Shown here: one piece after another, positions 1,486 through 31,716 of the stretch | Numbering within the stretch: the first letter of the stretch is position 1 | Layout: each line of letters opens with the position of its first letter | Assembly: GCA_947589185.1 (NCBI GenBank) | Contig: CANQCK010000011.1 | Span: 1 to 38,440 of the forward strand | Origin: an uncultured Clostridia bacterium | GTDB lineage: Bacteria; Bacillota; Clostridia; Oscillospirales; Ruminococcaceae | DNA: 38,440 nucleotides | Reading direction: 5' to 3' | Notes under the pieces: model-generated | What the model was told of the DNA's origin: nothing | The model's database searches: none | Seen by the model: only the letters and a program-made list of their open reading frames with translations | Position numbers and translations under genes: made by a program

Positions 1486-1524
1486 TGCTTGTGCAGACCG
1501 AATTTTTTGAAAGGAATTAAACGA

Positions 1525-2784
1525 ATGAAAATAAGAGATATAGATGGAATAGAAATACTTGATTCTCGGGGAAATCCAACGGTTCGGGCGATCGTCACAC
1601 TTGAGGACGGTACAAATGCGGCAGCCAGTGTTCCGTCTGGAGCGTCTACCGGAAGCTTTGAGGCATACGAACTTCGTGACGGAAACGATGAAAGGTATTT
1701 TGGAAAAGGTGTGGTAAAGGCAATTTCAAACATCACTGATATTATAAAGCCTGCACTTATTTCCAAAGGTGATTTAGACCAGCAGGAGCTTGACGATACT
1801 CTTAAAGCCATTGACGGAACTCCTAATTTAAAGGCTTTGGGAGCAAATGCGATACTGGCAGTTTCATTAGCCTTTGCACGTGCTTGTGCAAAGGCAAAGA
1901 AAGCTCCGCTATACAAATCGCTGAGCCTTGATGATGAGAAAATACTACCTATTCCAATGCTCAACATTCTAAACGGCGGAGCACATTCGAGCAACAACAT
2001 TGATATTCAGGAATTTATGATAATGCCGCTGGGGTTCTCGCATTATAGCGAGGGTTTGAGAGCGTCCTGCGAGGTTTATCACACTCTAGGAAAAATTCTT
2101 AGGGAGAAGGGCCTTTCAACCGGAGTCGGAGATGAGGGCGGATTTGCACCTAATATTGAAAGCGACGAGGAAGCACTGGACTTAATTCTGGAGGCAATAT
2201 TTAAAGCAGGCTTTGACGACAGCAAGTTTAAGCTTGCTCTTGACATAGCAGCATCAGAGTGGGTATGCGAAGGCGGATATAAACTTCCTAAGCGAGGGAA
2301 AATGCTTGACACAAACGGTATGATAGATTATGTCAAGGAGCTTTGCAAAAGTTATCCTATACGTTCAGTTGAAGACCCATTGGGAGAAAGTGATTTCAGC
2401 GGCTTTGAAAAACTGACAAAGGAGATAGGCGACAAGGTTCAGATTGTCGGGGACGATCTCTTTGTGACCAATCCTGACAGACTTCAAAAGGGAATTACGA
2501 GCAAGGCTGCAAATGCGATTTTGATTAAAGTCAACCAGATAGGAACATTAAGCGACGCAATAAAGGCAATAAGACTTGCGTATGACAACGGATATAATAC
2601 AATTATTTCACATCGAAGCGGAGAAACATCAGACAGCTTTATTGCAGACTTAGCAGTAGGTCTTTCGGCAGGGCAGATAAAAACAGGTGCTCCCTGCAGA
2701 AGCGAACGCTGTGAGAAATATAACAGACTTCTTGAAATTGAAAAAGAACTCGGTCCTGATGCAAGATATGGAAGAATGTTTTAA
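1525..2784 (+). CDS. eno: Enolase (phosphopyruvate hydratase)
   Basis: Converts 2-phosphoglycerate to phosphoenolpyruvate in glycolysis; cytoplasmic and Mg-dependent. The 419-residue protein has the family motifs in order: SVPSGASTG near the N-terminus, GGAHSSNN, GDEGGFAP, SVEDPLGESD and VGDDLFVTN (metal-binding Asp/Glu), NQIGTLSDAI, and SHRSGETSDSFIADLAVG with the C-terminal KTGAPCRSER. The open frame reaches back to 1489, but the ATG at 1525 is chosen because AAAGGA lies 9-14 bases before it and MKIRDIDG is the usual enolase N-terminus. It is slightly shorter than the usual 430 residues and carries GGAHSSNN where GGxHAxNN is common, so it may be a variant or second enolase. It follows ypeB in the same direction, an unusual neighbour for a glycolytic gene. 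Confidence 0.96.
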   Translation: MKIRDIDGIEILDSRGNPTVRAIVTLEDGTNAAASVPSGASTGSFEAYELRDGNDERYFGKGVVKAISNITDIIKPALISKGDLDQQELDDTLKAIDGTPNLKALGANAILAVSLAFARACAKAKKAPLYKSLSLDDEKILPIPMLNILNGGAHSSNNIDIQEFMIMPLGFSHYSEGLRASCEVYHTLGKILREKGLSTGVGDEGGFAPNIESDEEALDLILEAIFKAGFDDSKFKLALDIAASEWVCEGGYKLPKRGKMLDTNGMIDYVKELCKSYPIRSVEDPLGESDFSGFEKLTKEIGDKVQIVGDDLFVTNPDRLQKGITSKAANAILIKVNQIGTLSDAIKAIRLAYDNGYNTIISHRSGETSDSFIADLAVGLSAGQIKTGAPCRSERCEKYNRLLEIEKELGPDARYGRMF

Positions 2785-2815
2785 TAAAACTTTATATTTA
2801 TGAATATAAAAATAA

Positions 2816-2843
2816 AAAGTAGACACATTTTTGTGCCTACTTT
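2816..2843. terminator. Terminator hairpin, left copy (end of eno)
   Basis: An imperfect palindrome with 12-base arms, AAAGTAGACACA and TGTGCCTACTTT, around a TTTT loop; one A-C mismatch. It is identical over 28 bases to the hairpin at 3075-3102. On the minus strand this copy is followed by a T-rich run, so it can end the yfhO transcript. On the plus strand it lacks a T-run. Confidence 0.75.
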
Positions 2844-3074
2844 CAGAATATATAAAGTTTGTTTTTAGGGGCAGCCCTCTCTTGTAGGGCATGCCCCTCT
2901 TTAAAAATAGTCCACTGGACTATTTTTAAATTCACCCTGTGCGGAACGCACTCCGTAAAGCATTTCGCTGACGTCTCGTCAGCGACAGGGCTCCGCCCTT
3001 GACCCGCAAGCCTTTTGAAAAAGGCTTGACCGAAAACTTTTAGTTTATTATGAAAAACCTTTTTCGACAGTCTG
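2844..3074 (+). repeat. Hairpin-array repeat element, copy 1 (about 231 bp)
   Basis: This fills the eno-yfhO gap. It is a string of six hairpins: H1 2868-2897 (GGGGCA...TGCCCC with nested GCCCT/AGGGC), H2 2900-2930 (perfect 14-bp stem), H3 2941-2956, H4 2965-2985 (TCGCTGACG/CGTCAGCGA), H5 2987-2999 (AGGGC/GCCCT) and H6 3007-3028 (CAAGCC.../...GGCTTG). The same modules in the same order occur, inverted, at 10831-11132, and partly at 31587-31686. It has no convincing reading frame, ribosome site or transposase, so it resembles a non-autonomous interspersed repeat or a structured RNA. It sits exactly between two identical 28-base terminator hairpins. Confidence 0.8.
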
Positions 3075-3102
3075 AAAGTAGACACATTTTTGTGCCTACT
3101 TT
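3075..3102. terminator. Terminator hairpin, right copy (end of yfhO)
   Basis: Identical over 28 bases to 2816-2843. On the plus strand it runs into TTTTTTG, giving a complete intrinsic terminator for transcripts arriving from eno through the repeat. It lies 5 bases past the yfhO stop on the minus strand, where it lacks a T-run. Confidence 0.75.
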
Positions 3103-3107
3103 TTTGT

Positions 3108-6100
3108 TTATTGCTGATTTTCGTCAGGGTCATATTCAAGTTCCGGCGATTCAAGTTCTATTTCGTTTCCGTCTGAATCATAGATAGAAATGTCATCTGA
3201 TAAGTTAGTATCAAAATTATCATCTTGAGCAATGTTGTTATCATCTGATAGAATAACTGTTTCATCTTGAATATTATTATCAGGTTTTGAATCATCTAAA
3301 ACTTCGGTTTCTTGAGACTTAGGCTCAGTTTCAGAATTTGCTTCCTTGCTCAATTGTGTCTTTAGAACTTTTTTCTCTTCTTTTTTCTTTCTGCGTTCAT
3401 TTTCATAAATGAAAGATGGTTCAAAGCATTTCGGCTTGCGTTTTTTAACAAATATACTCATAAATATCAAAACAGCAAGACCTGATAGTGATATTACAAT
3501 TCCTGCAATAAATCCGGGCGGTGTGTATTTAAGTTCAACTGTATGTTTACCTTTTTCCAGCTTTACGCCTAGAACTGCTCCGCAAAGGTCAATTGTTTCA
3601 GACTTTTTGCCGTCTACGTATGCTGTCCAGCCGTTTGCAGGAATAGCCGTATACATATATCCGCCGGTTGACGCATTGATCTCACCCTTGAAGTAAGTGT
3701 CAGTATGCTTTGTTATATCGTAGGTTCCGTTTGATTTCAGTTTATTCAAACCTTCCTGCAGAACGTCGTCATTTATTTGATATACCAAACAGTTCAGCTG
3801 TCCGCTTGAATCAAGAGGATCTTTAGTAGTACCCATAACTGTTGCAGTTTCGCCTTTCTTTGCATAACCTACCGGAAAGATATATTCAAGATCTTTTTCA
3901 ACAGTATAAGTGTATGACTGATCGTCTGAACTGATCTTAGTTTCAATATCCTCTATAACATCACTGTCAAAGAAACAGTACAGCATAGCGTCTGACATTG
4001 CCGTATAGTTGAATTTTAAAACAGCGGTTTTGTTTTTGTCAGACGTCTGTTCAGCAGATGCATATTCCTGGTCTTCATCCATAATTGAAACCTCTGTAAG
4101 AATAGCACCGTAGCCTTCAATAGCAAGACCGCTTTCTTTAATAGCGTCAGTTATATCAATTGAAAATTCGTATGGTTCATCTGCAGCAAAGGTTTCATCT
4201 ACAACATTTATATCTTCCGGGTCTGACGGGGCATAGAAGTAAAAATCTGCATCATCAGCCCAAATGTCAGCGTCGCTTTGGTATCTAAATGTAACGTGTA
4301 GTTTCTTGCCGTCAAGCTCATTGGTTATCTCATCATCTTTACTTAAATTAAGAGCAGCCTTAAGATCTTCAATTTTTAATTGATAATATGAATTTGCATC
4401 TACTCCGCCGACCTTGTTCTCCGAGTTGTTTAATGCAAGTTCGCCGCTGTATAAAATCTTTCCGTTCAGATTGCCGGGTACATAGTTATATACGCCTGTT
4501 GCATTATCTTCATTTGTAACAGTAGCGTTTTCACCGGCACTGTTAGTCATCAAAACGTATGAATACAAATCTTTATCAATACCTGTCATACTCTTGAATA
4601 AAGCATTTAAATAGTAGAAAGGATTGTTCGGATTGCTGAGCTTAAAATCTTTCATACCGCTGTCTACCATAAATCCGAACGGCAGGTAAGCTGTGTTTTC
4701 ATAAAGCTCTGACGCACCTTCTCTGTCAATTTCTTTCAGGTAAGTGTCTGAATTAGCACCTGTTTTTGAAATAACATATTTCAGATTCAAAAGTGCGTTT
4801 GTAAAAGGATTTGTAGCACCGTAATAATATCTGTTTCCGCCCGGCTGAGAAACTATTCCGATGTTTTCCATATAATTCGATACCGATACATCAGACATTG
4901 AGCTGAACTGTGAAATACCGTAATAACGGTAGAGACATGGGTCGTTTATTGTATACCATTTGGACATTTCAGTACGGTAAAAGTCGTCGTCAGCAGGCTT
5001 TGTTTTTAAAAGCAGTTCCTGAACTTCATCGTTGCTTGCATAATATGTGCTGTATGAAGATGAACCTACTTTATCAACTCCTTTGCTGGCACAGGCATAT
5101 GTTTCGACTACCATAGGAATAATCATAAGAATGGATACGGTCTTTGTATTGATGAATTTGAATTTAATCAGCAAAACTGTGATGAGCGTAAGATAAATAA
5201 GTGCCCATGATATATTGTTTAACAGCACATTTTTGTCTACATCTTTTGAAAAATATCCTATTACTATAATTCCTGCAGCAGCAGCTATAGCTCCTGCGAT
5301 ATGAATCCAAGAAATATTTTCGAGCTGAGTAAAAGCACGGTACGCAACGATTATAAGAACAAATGCAAATATAAATGAAAATCTGAAAGGTATTTGATTT
5401 GTGAAATGGAAGCCGTGCCAAATAAAGTCCAGAATATTGTTGTTGCAGCTAACGACTAAAAACGTAAGAAAAACAAGAACAACAATTTTTTCACGTATTG
5501 GGATTTTCTTTGACAAAGCGTGTACGCCGATCATTATGACTGCCAACAAGGAGCAGTAGAGATTTGGCAGACCTTCAATGCTTGAGGGTGTTCGAAATGC
5601 GAGAAGATTTGCTAAAACGTCTCTGAAATCCTTATAGAAGTTAATTTGCGACGGGAAACTTAAATTGCCTCCTGAATAGGTAGCTCTTAAAGCCAGATAT
5701 GCAGGAAGAATCAAAATTGCAGTTAGTGCAATACCTGTAACTGAAAAAAGCAGAACCTGCCAAAGCCTTTTCAGAATAGTTTTTATACCGTATTTTAAAC
5801 ATATAACTTCCGCTATGAAAAAAAGTGCAATAAATATGCACAGGAAAAATCCGATGTAGAAGTTTGAGAAAAATGCAACTGCAAAGGAGATTGTATAAAG
5901 CTTGAATTTTCCGTCTTTGATTAGATAGTGAACACCAAGAGCAACCAAAGGCATAAGAGCAACGGTATCCAGCCACATTATGTTCCAGTAATAACCCATC
6001 AAATATGCACACAAAGCGTAGGGAATAGAAAAAAGAACAATAGAGAAGTCATTTCTTTTAAAAACGTTCTTGAGAAACATTCCCATAAAAAGACCTGCAC

Positions 6101-6554
6101 AGCCTATTTTGATACATACAAACAGAGCAAGAAAATCACGTATATATGCCTCAGGAATGAGCAATGCAAGAAAGTTTAAGGGGCTGGCTGTGTAGTATGA
6201 CATTATGCCGAGAAAGTTTTGTCCCCAGCCGGAGCGAAGCGAATATAACAGCGAACCTCCGTTTTGCAGCTTGTCCTGCATCTCAGAAATAAAAGGGAAG
6301 TATTGATGCCAGCAGTCTATAACAAGAATCTGATTATCTCCGGCAGGGTGCATTCCCGCTTTTATAAATACAATTAGCATAATTAAAAATGGTATTATAA
6401 ATGAAAGTACTACAAACAAATGTCTTATAGCAAACTGTATGCTTTTTGTATTGTATAATCTGTACAGTGCAGAATTTTTTTCTTTTGCAGCTTTATCGGG
6501 GCTGTAAACATTCTGTTTCAGTTTTATGGTGCTGTCGGTTTCTTTATTAAACAT
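3108..6554 (-). CDS. YfhO-family polytopic membrane protein
   Basis: A 1148-residue membrane protein of the YfhO family (PF09586), members of which are linked to glycosylation of lipoteichoic acid or other envelope polymers. After a basic cytoplasmic start the first helix lies near residues 45-67. An extracytoplasmic loop follows with GDNQ...DCWHQYFPF, the family's D-x3-QYxPF signature. About ten more hydrophobic helices reach to about residue 480. A large extracytoplasmic domain follows, then a last helix (GFIAGIVISLSGLAVLIFM) and a cytoplasmic tail. The tail is odd: a Lys/Glu-rich stretch and then about 60 residues rich in Asp, Glu and Asn. The ATG has AGGT 8-11 bases upstream. The gene is monocistronic, ending at the 3075-3102 hairpin. 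The substrate is not evident from the neighbours. Confidence 0.85.
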   Translation of the reverse strand: MFNKETDSTIKLKQNVYSPDKAAKEKNSALYRLYNTKSIQFAIRHLFVVLSFIIPFLIMLIVFIKAGMHPAGDNQILVIDCWHQYFPFISEMQDKLQNGGSLLYSLRSGWGQNFLGIMSYYTASPLNFLALLIPEAYIRDFLALFVCIKIGCAGLFMGMFLKNVFKRNDFSIVLFSIPYALCAYLMGYYWNIMWLDTVALMPLVALGVHYLIKDGKFKLYTISFAVAFFSNFYIGFFLCIFIALFFIAEVICLKYGIKTILKRLWQVLLFSVTGIALTAILILPAYLALRATYSGGNLSFPSQINFYKDFRDVLANLLAFRTPSSIEGLPNLYCSLLAVIMIGVHALSKKIPIREKIVVLVFLTFLVVSCNNNILDFIWHGFHFTNQIPFRFSFIFAFVLIIVAYRAFTQLENISWIHIAGAIAAAAGIIVIGYFSKDVDKNVLLNNISWALIYLTLITVLLIKFKFINTKTVSILMIIPMVVETYACASKGVDKVGSSSYSTYYASNDEVQELLLKTKPADDDFYRTEMSKWYTINDPCLYRYYGISQFSSMSDVSVSNYMENIGIVSQPGGNRYYYGATNPFTNALLNLKYVISKTGANSDTYLKEIDREGASELYENTAYLPFGFMVDSGMKDFKLSNPNNPFYYLNALFKSMTGIDKDLYSYVLMTNSAGENATVTNEDNATGVYNYVPGNLNGKILYSGELALNNSENKVGGVDANSYYQLKIEDLKAALNLSKDDEITNELDGKKLHVTFRYQSDADIWADDADFYFYAPSDPEDINVVDETFAADEPYEFSIDITDAIKESGLAIEGYGAILTEVSIMDEDQEYASAEQTSDKNKTAVLKFNYTAMSDAMLYCFFDSDVIEDIETKISSDDQSYTYTVEKDLEYIFPVGYAKKGETATVMGTTKDPLDSSGQLNCLVYQINDDVLQEGLNKLKSNGTYDITKHTDTYFKGEINASTGGYMYTAIPANGWTAYVDGKKSETIDLCGAVLGVKLEKGKHTVELKYTPPGFIAGIVISLSGLAVLIFMSIFVKKRKPKCFEPSFIYENERRKKKEEKKVLKTQLSKEANSETEPKSQETEVLDDSKPDNNIQDETVILSDDNNIAQDDNFDTNLSDDISIYDSDGNEIELESPELEYDPDENQQ

Positions 6555-10797: not shown

Positions 10798-10830
10798 CTT
10801 AAGCCCCGAGGAATTACCTTGGGGCTTAAG
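10798..10830 (+). terminator. secA terminator hairpin (left flank of repeat copy 2)
   Basis: CTTAAGCCCC/GGGGCTTAAG stem, with an inner AAGG/CCTT-like extension, 10 bases after the secA stop. It has no T-run after it. A related hairpin with a following T-rich run lies beyond the repeat at 11138-11157. Confidence 0.65.
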
Positions 10831-11132
10831 TTAGCAGAAAAAGCTGTTGTGTAATAAACCAAAAGTTTTCGGTCAAGCCTTTTTCAAAAGGCTTGCAGGT
10901 CAAGGGCGGAGCCCTGTCGCCGACCGTAGTCGGCGAAATCCTTTTACGGAGTGCGCTCCGCATAGGGGTGTAACCTAAAACTGCAAAGCAGTTTTAGCTA
11001 AAAAACAGTCCAGTGGATTGTTTTTTAAATGGGCAAATAGACGTTAGTCTATTTTTTAGCTGAAAATGCTATGCATTTTCAGGTTAAGCCCTGCAAGAGA
11101 GGGCTGCCCCAAAAAATACTTTATTTACATCT
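10831..11132 (-). repeat. Hairpin-array repeat element, copy 2 (about 302 bp, inverted)
   Basis: This fills the secA to 11171 gap. Read on the minus strand it has the same module order as copy 1: the GGGGCAGCCCTCTCTTG hairpin, the GTCC/GGAC hairpin (plus-strand 11000-11026), GCGGAGCGCACTCCG, the TCGCCGAC/GTCGGCGA hairpin (plus-strand 10917-10936), AGGGC/GCCCT and the CAAGCC/GGCTTG hairpin. It also carries three extra palindromes that copy 1 lacks: CTGAAAATGC/GCATTTTCAG, AATAGAC/GTCTATT and TAAAACTGC/GCAGTTTTA. It has no credible coding capacity. Confidence 0.8.
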
Positions 11133-11137
11133 AGAGT

Positions 11138-11157
11138 CCCAAGGAAATCCTTGAGGC
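11138..11157. terminator. Terminator hairpin, right flank of repeat copy 2
   Basis: Short stem CCCAAGG/CCTTGAGG just past the stop of the minus-strand gene at 11171. On the plus strand it is followed by CTTTAATTTTA. It resembles the secA-side hairpin at 10798-10830 in direct orientation (shared AGGAA...CCTTG.GGCT). Confidence 0.55.
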
Positions 11158-11170
11158 TTTAATTTTATCC

Positions 11171-31542: not shown

Positions 31543-31562
31543 GGAGAAGTTTGTAAAAATAA

Positions 31563-31586
31563 GAGCGTACCGTTTAGGGTGCGCTC
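31563..31586 (-). terminator. Terminator-like hairpin, distal flank of repeat copy 3
   Basis: GAGCGTACC/GGTGCGCTC stem (one G-U pair); on the minus strand it runs into TTATTTTTAC. Its right arm is shared with the end of the repeat (GTGCGCTCC), so it may be a fusion of the two. Confidence 0.5.
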
Positions 31587-31686
31587 CGCATAGGATGAAT
31601 TTAAAAACAGTCCGGTGGACTGTTTTTAAAGAGGGGCATGCCCTGTAAGAGAGGGCTGCCCCTAAAAATAGACTTTATCTACACCC
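31587..31686 (-). repeat. Hairpin-array repeat element, copy 3 (truncated, about 100 bp)
   Basis: Read on the minus strand it matches the left half of copy 1: ATAAAGT...TTTTTAGGGGCAGCCCTC, the H1 hairpin, a perfect 14-bp H2 hairpin (31600-31630, TTTAAAAACAGTCC/GGACTGTTTTTAAA) and CCTATGCGGAGCGCACC, where it ends. H4-H6 are absent. Confidence 0.78.
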
Positions 31687-31716
31687 AGAGAGCATACCGA
31701 AATGGCATACTCTCTT
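31687..31716 (-). terminator. Terminator-like hairpin of the ribbon-helix-helix gene
   Basis: Minus-strand stem AGAGAGTATGCC/GGTATGCTCTCT, 12 bp including two G-U pairs, 4 bases past the stop at 31720. It has no T-run on the minus strand because the repeat begins there. Confidence 0.6.

What the first reader, a model, noticed from the sequence alone, without database searches (positions are those of the whole stretch)
2816..3102. Hairpin-array repeat lying inside a perfectly duplicated terminator
Seen: a 231-base array of six hairpins stands between two identical 28-base terminator hairpins in direct orientation. The left copy keeps the A/T-rich run needed by the minus-strand gene and the right copy keeps the T-run needed by the plus-strand gene; each lacks the run on the side of the repeat. 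That is the pattern expected if one bidirectional terminator was duplicated when the element entered. Inference: the element targets terminator hairpins and generates an unusually long target duplication, or it propagates by recombination between hairpins. I do not know a described element with this behaviour.
Basis: partly seen in the sequence, partly recalled or inferred. Interest (0 to 1): 0.8.

Follow-up and report, generated by a model that had tools for sequence, protein, structure and literature searches.

The report
Mobile element that duplicates terminator hairpins
A short mobile DNA element inserts at the hairpins that end bacterial genes and copies the whole hairpin to both of its sides, and full-size relatives that carry their own enzyme do the same, so the target appears to be chosen by DNA shape.

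Summary
A 231-base element at 2844-3074 lies between two identical 28-base terminator hairpins; related genomes carry the empty site with one hairpin. Of 87 copies scored, 34 (29 independent sites) are flanked by a direct duplication of a hairpin, different at each site; 0 of 812 cross-paired flanks between independent sites score as high. Most of the other 53 lack an end or share flanks with other copies. The end CAGNCTGTCGAAAAAG matches IS1182-family insertion sequences. In Thermocaproicibacter melissae an autonomous IS1182 element has eight identical copies: six lie between exact hairpin duplications, two have swapped partners. At 19 of 20 chosen autonomous sites the duplication is 20-39 bases, follows hairpin length (r = 0.93) and is centred on it. 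The window element is best read as an IS1182-type MITE whose target is cut at the hairpin base. Hairpin targeting is published for IS1272 of this family, but with loss of the hairpin; duplication was a predicted branch of that model. ISfinder and the main review could not be read, so priority is open.

The parts
2816..2843 (.). left copy of the duplicated terminator hairpin (28 nt); outer A/T run serves the minus-strand gene
   Evidence: single copy in the empty site of G012
2844..3074 (+). IS1182-type MITE, 231 nt, no transposase gene; six predicted hairpins
   Evidence: consensus structure of 14 copies, 10 of 58 pairs with changes on both sides
2844..2857 (+). left terminal repeat CAGAATATATAAAG (in other copies CTGGGTGTAGATAAAG)
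3058..3074 (-). right terminal repeat; on the minus strand CAGACTGTCGAAAAAGG, like IS1182-family ends
3075..3102 (.). right copy of the duplicated terminator hairpin; outer T run serves the plus-strand gene
1489..2784 (+). enolase gene (name recalled from its sequence, not from a call), convergent neighbour
   Evidence: ORF; its 3' part was found in 15 of 15 genus genomes
3108..6554 (-). 1148-aa ORF, looks like a membrane protein (by eye), the other convergent neighbour
10801..11160 (-). second copy in the window (longer variant), between diverged hairpins 10801-10827 and 11135-11160, between convergent ORFs
   Evidence: (L015)
31555..31714 (-). third, truncated copy; intact hairpin 31688-31714, half hairpin at 31555-31573
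   Evidence: (L018)

Best explanation
The repeat is a non-autonomous miniature element (MITE) moved in trans by an IS1182-family DDE transposase. The transposase uses terminator palindromes as targets by shape. Its two strand transfers join the element ends to the 5' foot of the hairpin on each strand, most simply on an extruded cruciform, where the two feet lie side by side. Gap repair then copies the whole palindrome, so the target duplication is exactly one hairpin long. Shown here: single-hairpin empty sites, hairpin-length duplications, and the same behaviour in autonomous IS1182 elements. Inferred: movement of this MITE by that transposase, the cruciform as the recognised form, and the order of steps.
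For: The window duplication is exact. Single-hairpin empty sites exist at three of three insertions examined. 34 of 87 scored copies have the duplication, 31 of 41 with both ends recognised, at 29 independent sites; 0 of 812 cross-paired flanks between independent sites reach the score. In these the duplication centre lies a median 0.5 nt from the palindrome centre. Autonomous IS1182 of T. melissae: of 8 identical copies 6 have exact hairpin duplications, and the other two have reciprocally swapped partners. Its protein matches NCBIfam NF033551 IS1182 transposase at E 1.5e-119. At 20 autonomous sites chosen because a duplication had been seen, 19 gave an exact one, 20-39 nt, r = 0.93 with hairpin span, median centre offset 0. 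27 of 30 ends CAGNCTGTCGAAAAAGTCC (of 54 listed) abut a hairpin, against 3 of 30 inner controls.
Against: The window's own genome has no PF13751 match, so the present source of transposase is unknown; the other 14 genus genomes gave only a broken match in G006 and a partial one in G013. Of 47 IS1182-type loci scanned, only 9 showed the hairpin duplication; some of the others have different ends, or two different hairpins at the two ends (L149, L184, L192, L197). Of 9 plasmid IS1182 loci, 5 did; L260 (annotated ISEfa7) and L268 (same ends) did not. 53 of 87 MITE copies lack the duplication; L007 has recognisable ends but a hairpin on one side only. A cruder cross-pairing that included the same insertion in two species gave 13 of 1640 at the threshold. 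Nothing here observes a cruciform directly.
Confidence: 0.87

Rival explanations
1. Sequence, not shape, is read: the transposase recognises something shared by terminators or is guided by the transcription machinery at terminators, and the wide stagger is coincidental.
For: An outer T or A run (at least 6 of 12 bases) is present at 34 of 34 duplicated sites.
Against: The hairpins differ between independent sites, and the duplication length follows the hairpin (20-39 nt, r = 0.93) and is centred on it. A fixed stagger cannot do this. Literature: TnSha1, moved by IS1272 of the same family, also has hairpin targets outside known terminators, one in a coding region (PMC4923244, passages read).
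Confidence: 0.1
2. Two hairpins stood there first (tandem or convergent terminators) and the element landed between them.
For: Some elements have two different hairpins at their ends (L103; L149, L184, L192, L197; L262).
Against: Empty sites have one hairpin: 7 relatives at the window site, 7 at L003 and 2 at L011. 20 of 34 pairs are identical. In T. melissae two copies with different hairpins are reciprocal swaps, pointing to recombination between copies.
Confidence: 0.02
3. The element spreads by homologous recombination between hairpins.
For: The two flanking hairpins are identical here.
Against: Independent sites have different hairpins, so the element carries no shared hairpin to recombine with.
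Confidence: 0.01
4. Hairpin replacement as in IS1272, followed by secondary gain of hairpins.
For: Same transposase family and palindromic target (PMC5678879, PMC4923244).
Against: Both flanks carry the complete hairpin, identical to the one in the G012 empty site. Six T. melissae copies show exact duplication without decay.
Confidence: 0.02

Closest known systems
IS1272 and TnSha1 (IS1182 family), staphylococci
   Same: IS1182-family transposase; targets stem-loops, often terminators, without sequence consensus (PMC5678879 sections 22-24 and 29 part 1; PMC4923244 passages)
   Different: They remove or replace the stem-loop, or part of it, and leave no target duplication; here the whole stem-loop is duplicated
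Pathway b of the Wan et al. 2017 cruciform model (Fig 13 legend and discussion, PMC5678879)
   Different: There a theoretical branch without an example in the sections I read; here many examples
IS1182-derived MITEs of Methanosarcina acetivorans (ISMac2; table passage of PMC3852290)
   Same: Small non-autonomous relatives of an IS1182 element
   Different: As I read that table, their target repeats are 4 or 0 bases
REP-targeting IS elements (PMC1525189, search listing and start of abstract only)
   Same: Palindromic extragenic targets
   Different: Not compared here; recalled as sequence-specific with short or no duplications

Membership tests
IS1182 family (through an autonomous partner) | IS1182 transposase | tested here: inconclusive
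   Two autonomous elements with matching ends match NF033551 at E about 1e-119. The MITE has no gene, and its own genome has no PF13751 match
IS1182 family (through an autonomous partner) | Matching terminal repeats | tested here: met
   MITE right end CAGACTGTCGAAAAAGG against CAGCCTGTCGAAAAAGTCC of the T. melissae IS; the MITE's left end is more diverged
MITE | Short, no gene, terminal repeats, target duplication, many copies | tested here: met
   231 nt; imperfect terminal repeats; 29 independent duplicated sites
IS1272-type stem-loop-replacing transposition | Loss of the target stem-loop, no target duplication | tested here: not met
   Whole hairpin duplicated; empty site has one copy
IS1182 whole-stem-loop duplication (pathway b) | Duplication equals the stem-loop, length follows it | tested here: met
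IS1182 whole-stem-loop duplication (pathway b) | Attack on an extruded cruciform | not testable with these tools
   Needs biochemistry
IS200/IS605 family | No target duplication (recalled) | tested here: not met
   28-nt duplication in the window

The most novel reading that the evidence does not exclude
IS1182-type transposases read DNA shape, and subgroups differ in where on a cruciform they strike: at the foot (whole hairpin duplicated, ends CAGNCTGT), at the loop (5-base loop duplicated, stem split, ends GG[AC]GCTGTTGACAAA; 4 of 7 distinct sites), or with loss of the hairpin (IS1272, from the literature). Duplication length is set by the target. This would make IS1182 a family whose staggers are set by DNA structure, and would explain how its MITEs colonise terminators at little cost, each neighbour keeping a hairpin with its own U run.
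Probability: 0.5. Interest if true: 0.8.

Novelty: new variant of a known kind. Interest (0 to 1): 0.64.

Why it matters
Target duplications of DDE transposons are normally short and near-constant in length (general knowledge). Here the length varies with, and equals, the target's secondary structure, which is natural evidence that a transposase can use a cruciform or hairpin as its target. It supplies examples for a branch that the published IS1272 model only predicted, gives a simple signature to find such elements, and offers hairpin pairs as tags that reveal recombination between copies, as for the T. melissae plasmid pTVN. It also explains a class of repeats at gene 3' ends in uncultured Clostridia.

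Tried and rejected
Rfam gave no match in the window at gathering thresholds. Recombination between hairpins and pre-existing double hairpins were rejected. No complete IS1182 gene turned up in the 15 genus genomes (PF13751 search), so no parent element was found beside the MITE. L260 and L268 did not show the duplication, and the ends of L265 were not found. The loop-duplication group rests on few sites: 4 of 7, and in its cross-paired null 4 of 42 reached the stem score of 5, maximum 6, while two observed stems score 8 and 12; it is a lead only. A first alignment included a misplaced row (L035) and was replaced by A2, for which I chose 14 copies. In one search one duplication (L097, 15 nt) is probably spurious and L067 is diverged; both stay in the counts.

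Rows dropped before counts: one search lists more copies than I fetched ('more matches are not listed'), and I left out several short or partial matches. The 87 rows leave out three copies at contig ends (L004, L017, L060) and seven loci (L024-L030) that are further hits inside copies already counted. The nine plasmid loci were picked from 60 listed rows (415 matching records). The 30 ends are those given as loci out of 54 listed; some are the same elements as. Empty sites and several decayed hairpins were judged by eye.

Papers: PMC5678879 outline with abstract, sections 22, 23, 24 and 29 part 1; PMC4923244, PMC3098183, PMC9208149, PMC3852290 and PMC10969869 passages only; all others search listings. 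Statements on what is in print rest on searches. Two IS reviews were not held, and ISfinder was not available; what they say of IS1182 targets I know only as cited in PMC5678879 and PMC4923244.

Full report
What is there. The window has a 231-base element at 2844-3074 between two identical 28-base hairpins in direct orientation. It lies between convergent genes, one ending at 2784 (enolase, named by recall) and a minus-strand ORF ending at 3108. The hairpin has no other occurrence in the window at up to 3 mismatches. Six hairpins are predicted inside the element, and the stretch 2800-3120 is far more stable than shuffles (z = -10.9). In an alignment of 14 chosen copies the internal hairpins are conserved, and 10 of 58 predicted pairs have sequences changed on both sides with pairing kept.

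A repeat with terminator addresses. The element recurs in its genome (49 matches counted, fragments included), and 15 of 61 genomes searched have some match at E <= 0.001, a few of them weak. I fetched copies with flanks and compared the flanks of each. Of 87 copies scored, 34 have a direct duplication: 31 of 41 with both ends recognised, 3 of 32 with one end, 0 of 14 with none. They represent 29 independent sites; 20 of 34 pairs are identical; none of 812 cross-paired flanks between independent sites reached the threshold. A cruder cross-pairing in which the same insertion in two species was not removed gave 13 of 1640. The duplicated sequence is a palindromic hairpin, different between independent sites. 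An outer T or A run is present in 34 of 34; on the inner sides a T run follows the left copy in 11 and an A run precedes the right copy in 3.

Copies without it. Of the 10 copies scored as having both ends but no duplication, five (L009, L063, L070, L079, L087) match only to element position 198-203 and look like false or partial end calls. L073 and L095 do show a duplication, L033 and L036 have what look like decayed hairpin copies, and L007 has a hairpin on one side only. Of all 53 copies without the duplication, 34 fall into eight groups with shared flanks: mostly old insertions inherited by several species, and in one group the core is carried inside a larger repeat. The other 19 stand alone.

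Empty sites. At the enolase locus, 15 of 15 genus genomes were found. G000 and G006 carry the insertion. G012 has the same flanks with one hairpin, identical to both copies in the window. G002, G014, G011, G009, G008 and G004 also have one hairpin there. G003 is rearranged, and five more distant genomes have another neighbour gene and one hairpin. At the L003 insertion I looked at nine loci: two filled, seven with one hairpin. At L011 I looked at five: one filled, two with one (diverged) hairpin, two not alignable.

Which element family. The right end reads CAGACTGTCGAAAAAGG on the minus strand. This motif also abuts terminator-like hairpins in other genera. Seven of 24 tested ends, in four other genera, show clear hairpin duplications around short elements of about 230-305 bases (L105, L126, L130, L133, L141, L142, L143); the genomes concerned gave no match to the window's element. 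In G022 the same end leads into a gene with PF13751 and PF05598 domains, flanked by a 29-base hairpin duplication. NCBIfam names this protein IS1182 family transposase.

The autonomous test. G234 has eight identical 1526-bp IS1182 copies. Its small contig has the length of plasmid pTVN of Thermocaproicibacter melissae (19,378), and the transposase is 100% identical. Six copies are flanked by exact duplications of six different hairpins. The other two, on the chromosome and on the plasmid, have the two hairpins exchanged, as expected from recombination between copies. Of 47 further IS1182-type loci (one of them again a G234 copy), 9 show whole-hairpin duplications. Of 24 of the rest examined closely, four have two different hairpins, and most of the others have different end sequences. 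Of 9 plasmid-borne IS1182 loci, 5 show it, in Sutcliffiella, Enterococcus, Staphylococcus, Macrococcoides and Rhizobium; one has two different hairpins, L260 (annotated ISEfa7) and L268 (same ends) show none, and the ends of one were not found. For 20 sites chosen because the duplication had been seen, an exact one was measured at 19 (L156 differs in its loop): 20-39 bases, correlation with hairpin span 0.93, median centre offset 0. For the 34 MITE pairs, decayed ones included, the figures are 15-39 bases, r = 0.69 and 0.5 nt. In a less selected test, 27 of 30 exact ends CAGNCTGTCGAAAAAGTCC have a hairpin directly outside, against 3 of 30 inner control stretches; these are the 30 of 54 listed ends that came with loci, and some overlap the sites above.

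Mechanism. Duplication of a target arises when the two strand transfers are staggered and the gaps are filled. A stagger that equals the palindrome, whatever its length, and is centred on it, means that the two cut sites are defined by the palindrome's structure. In an extruded cruciform the two 5' feet are neighbours at the four-way junction, so an enzyme with a small reach could strike both. This is branch b of the model drawn by Wan et al. (PMC5678879, section 29 part 1). Their IS1272, of the same family, removes the stem-loop instead (sections 22-24), and TnSha1 deletes part of it (PMC4923244 passages). A second group of IS1182-type elements, with ends GG[AC]GCTGTTGACAAA, seems to duplicate the 5-base loop and split the stem: 4 of 7 distinct sites, which would be their branch c. 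That part is a lead. The cruciform itself is inferred.

Consequences. After insertion each convergent gene keeps a complete hairpin with its own U run, but only on the far side of the element, so transcripts probably carry the element as a 3' tail (inference). This mild outcome may explain the high copy numbers.

Novelty. Targeting of palindromes by IS1182 elements is published. Among the papers found by searches, of which I read parts of six, I saw no demonstrated case of whole-hairpin duplication; two IS reviews were not held and ISfinder was not available. I rate it a new variant of a known kind. Seven named stretches with the element's exact right end come from records titled 'uncultured Clostridia bacterium isolate Lapin-...'; a rabbit origin is inferred from that name.

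Noticed in passing
L202, L204, L220, L224: IS1182-type elements with ends GG[AC]GCTGTTGACAAA sit in hairpin loops; 5-base loop duplicated, stem split.
   Followed up: partly
L205 and L212/L259 (T. melissae chromosome and plasmid pTVN): Two IS copies carry reciprocally exchanged hairpin pairs, suggesting recombination between copies linked the plasmid and the chromosome.
   Followed up: partly
L156 415-449 and 1972-2006: The two hairpin copies have identical arms, but the loops (aagatt, aatctt) are reverse complements, as if one hairpin had been inverted.
   Followed up: no
L032: The two hairpin copies differ by a paired change on both arms, so pairing is kept.
   Followed up: no
L011, L019, L021, L022, L023: In these copies the AAGCCTTTTGAAAAAGGCTT hairpin is replaced by an unrelated stretch of roughly 150 bases beginning CCCAACGA.
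   Followed up: no
L103 1469-1516: A 48-base unit made almost only of two facing terminal repeats lies between two different terminator-like hairpins.
   Followed up: no
L008/L051/L070/L071/L072/L082/L096 and L010/L050/L053/L074/L075/L084/L085: Core copies without ends, with shared flanks in several species of the genus: old insertions, perhaps with a use.
   Followed up: partly
L140 2327-2733: An element of about 200 bases is repeated in tandem in G052.
   Followed up: no
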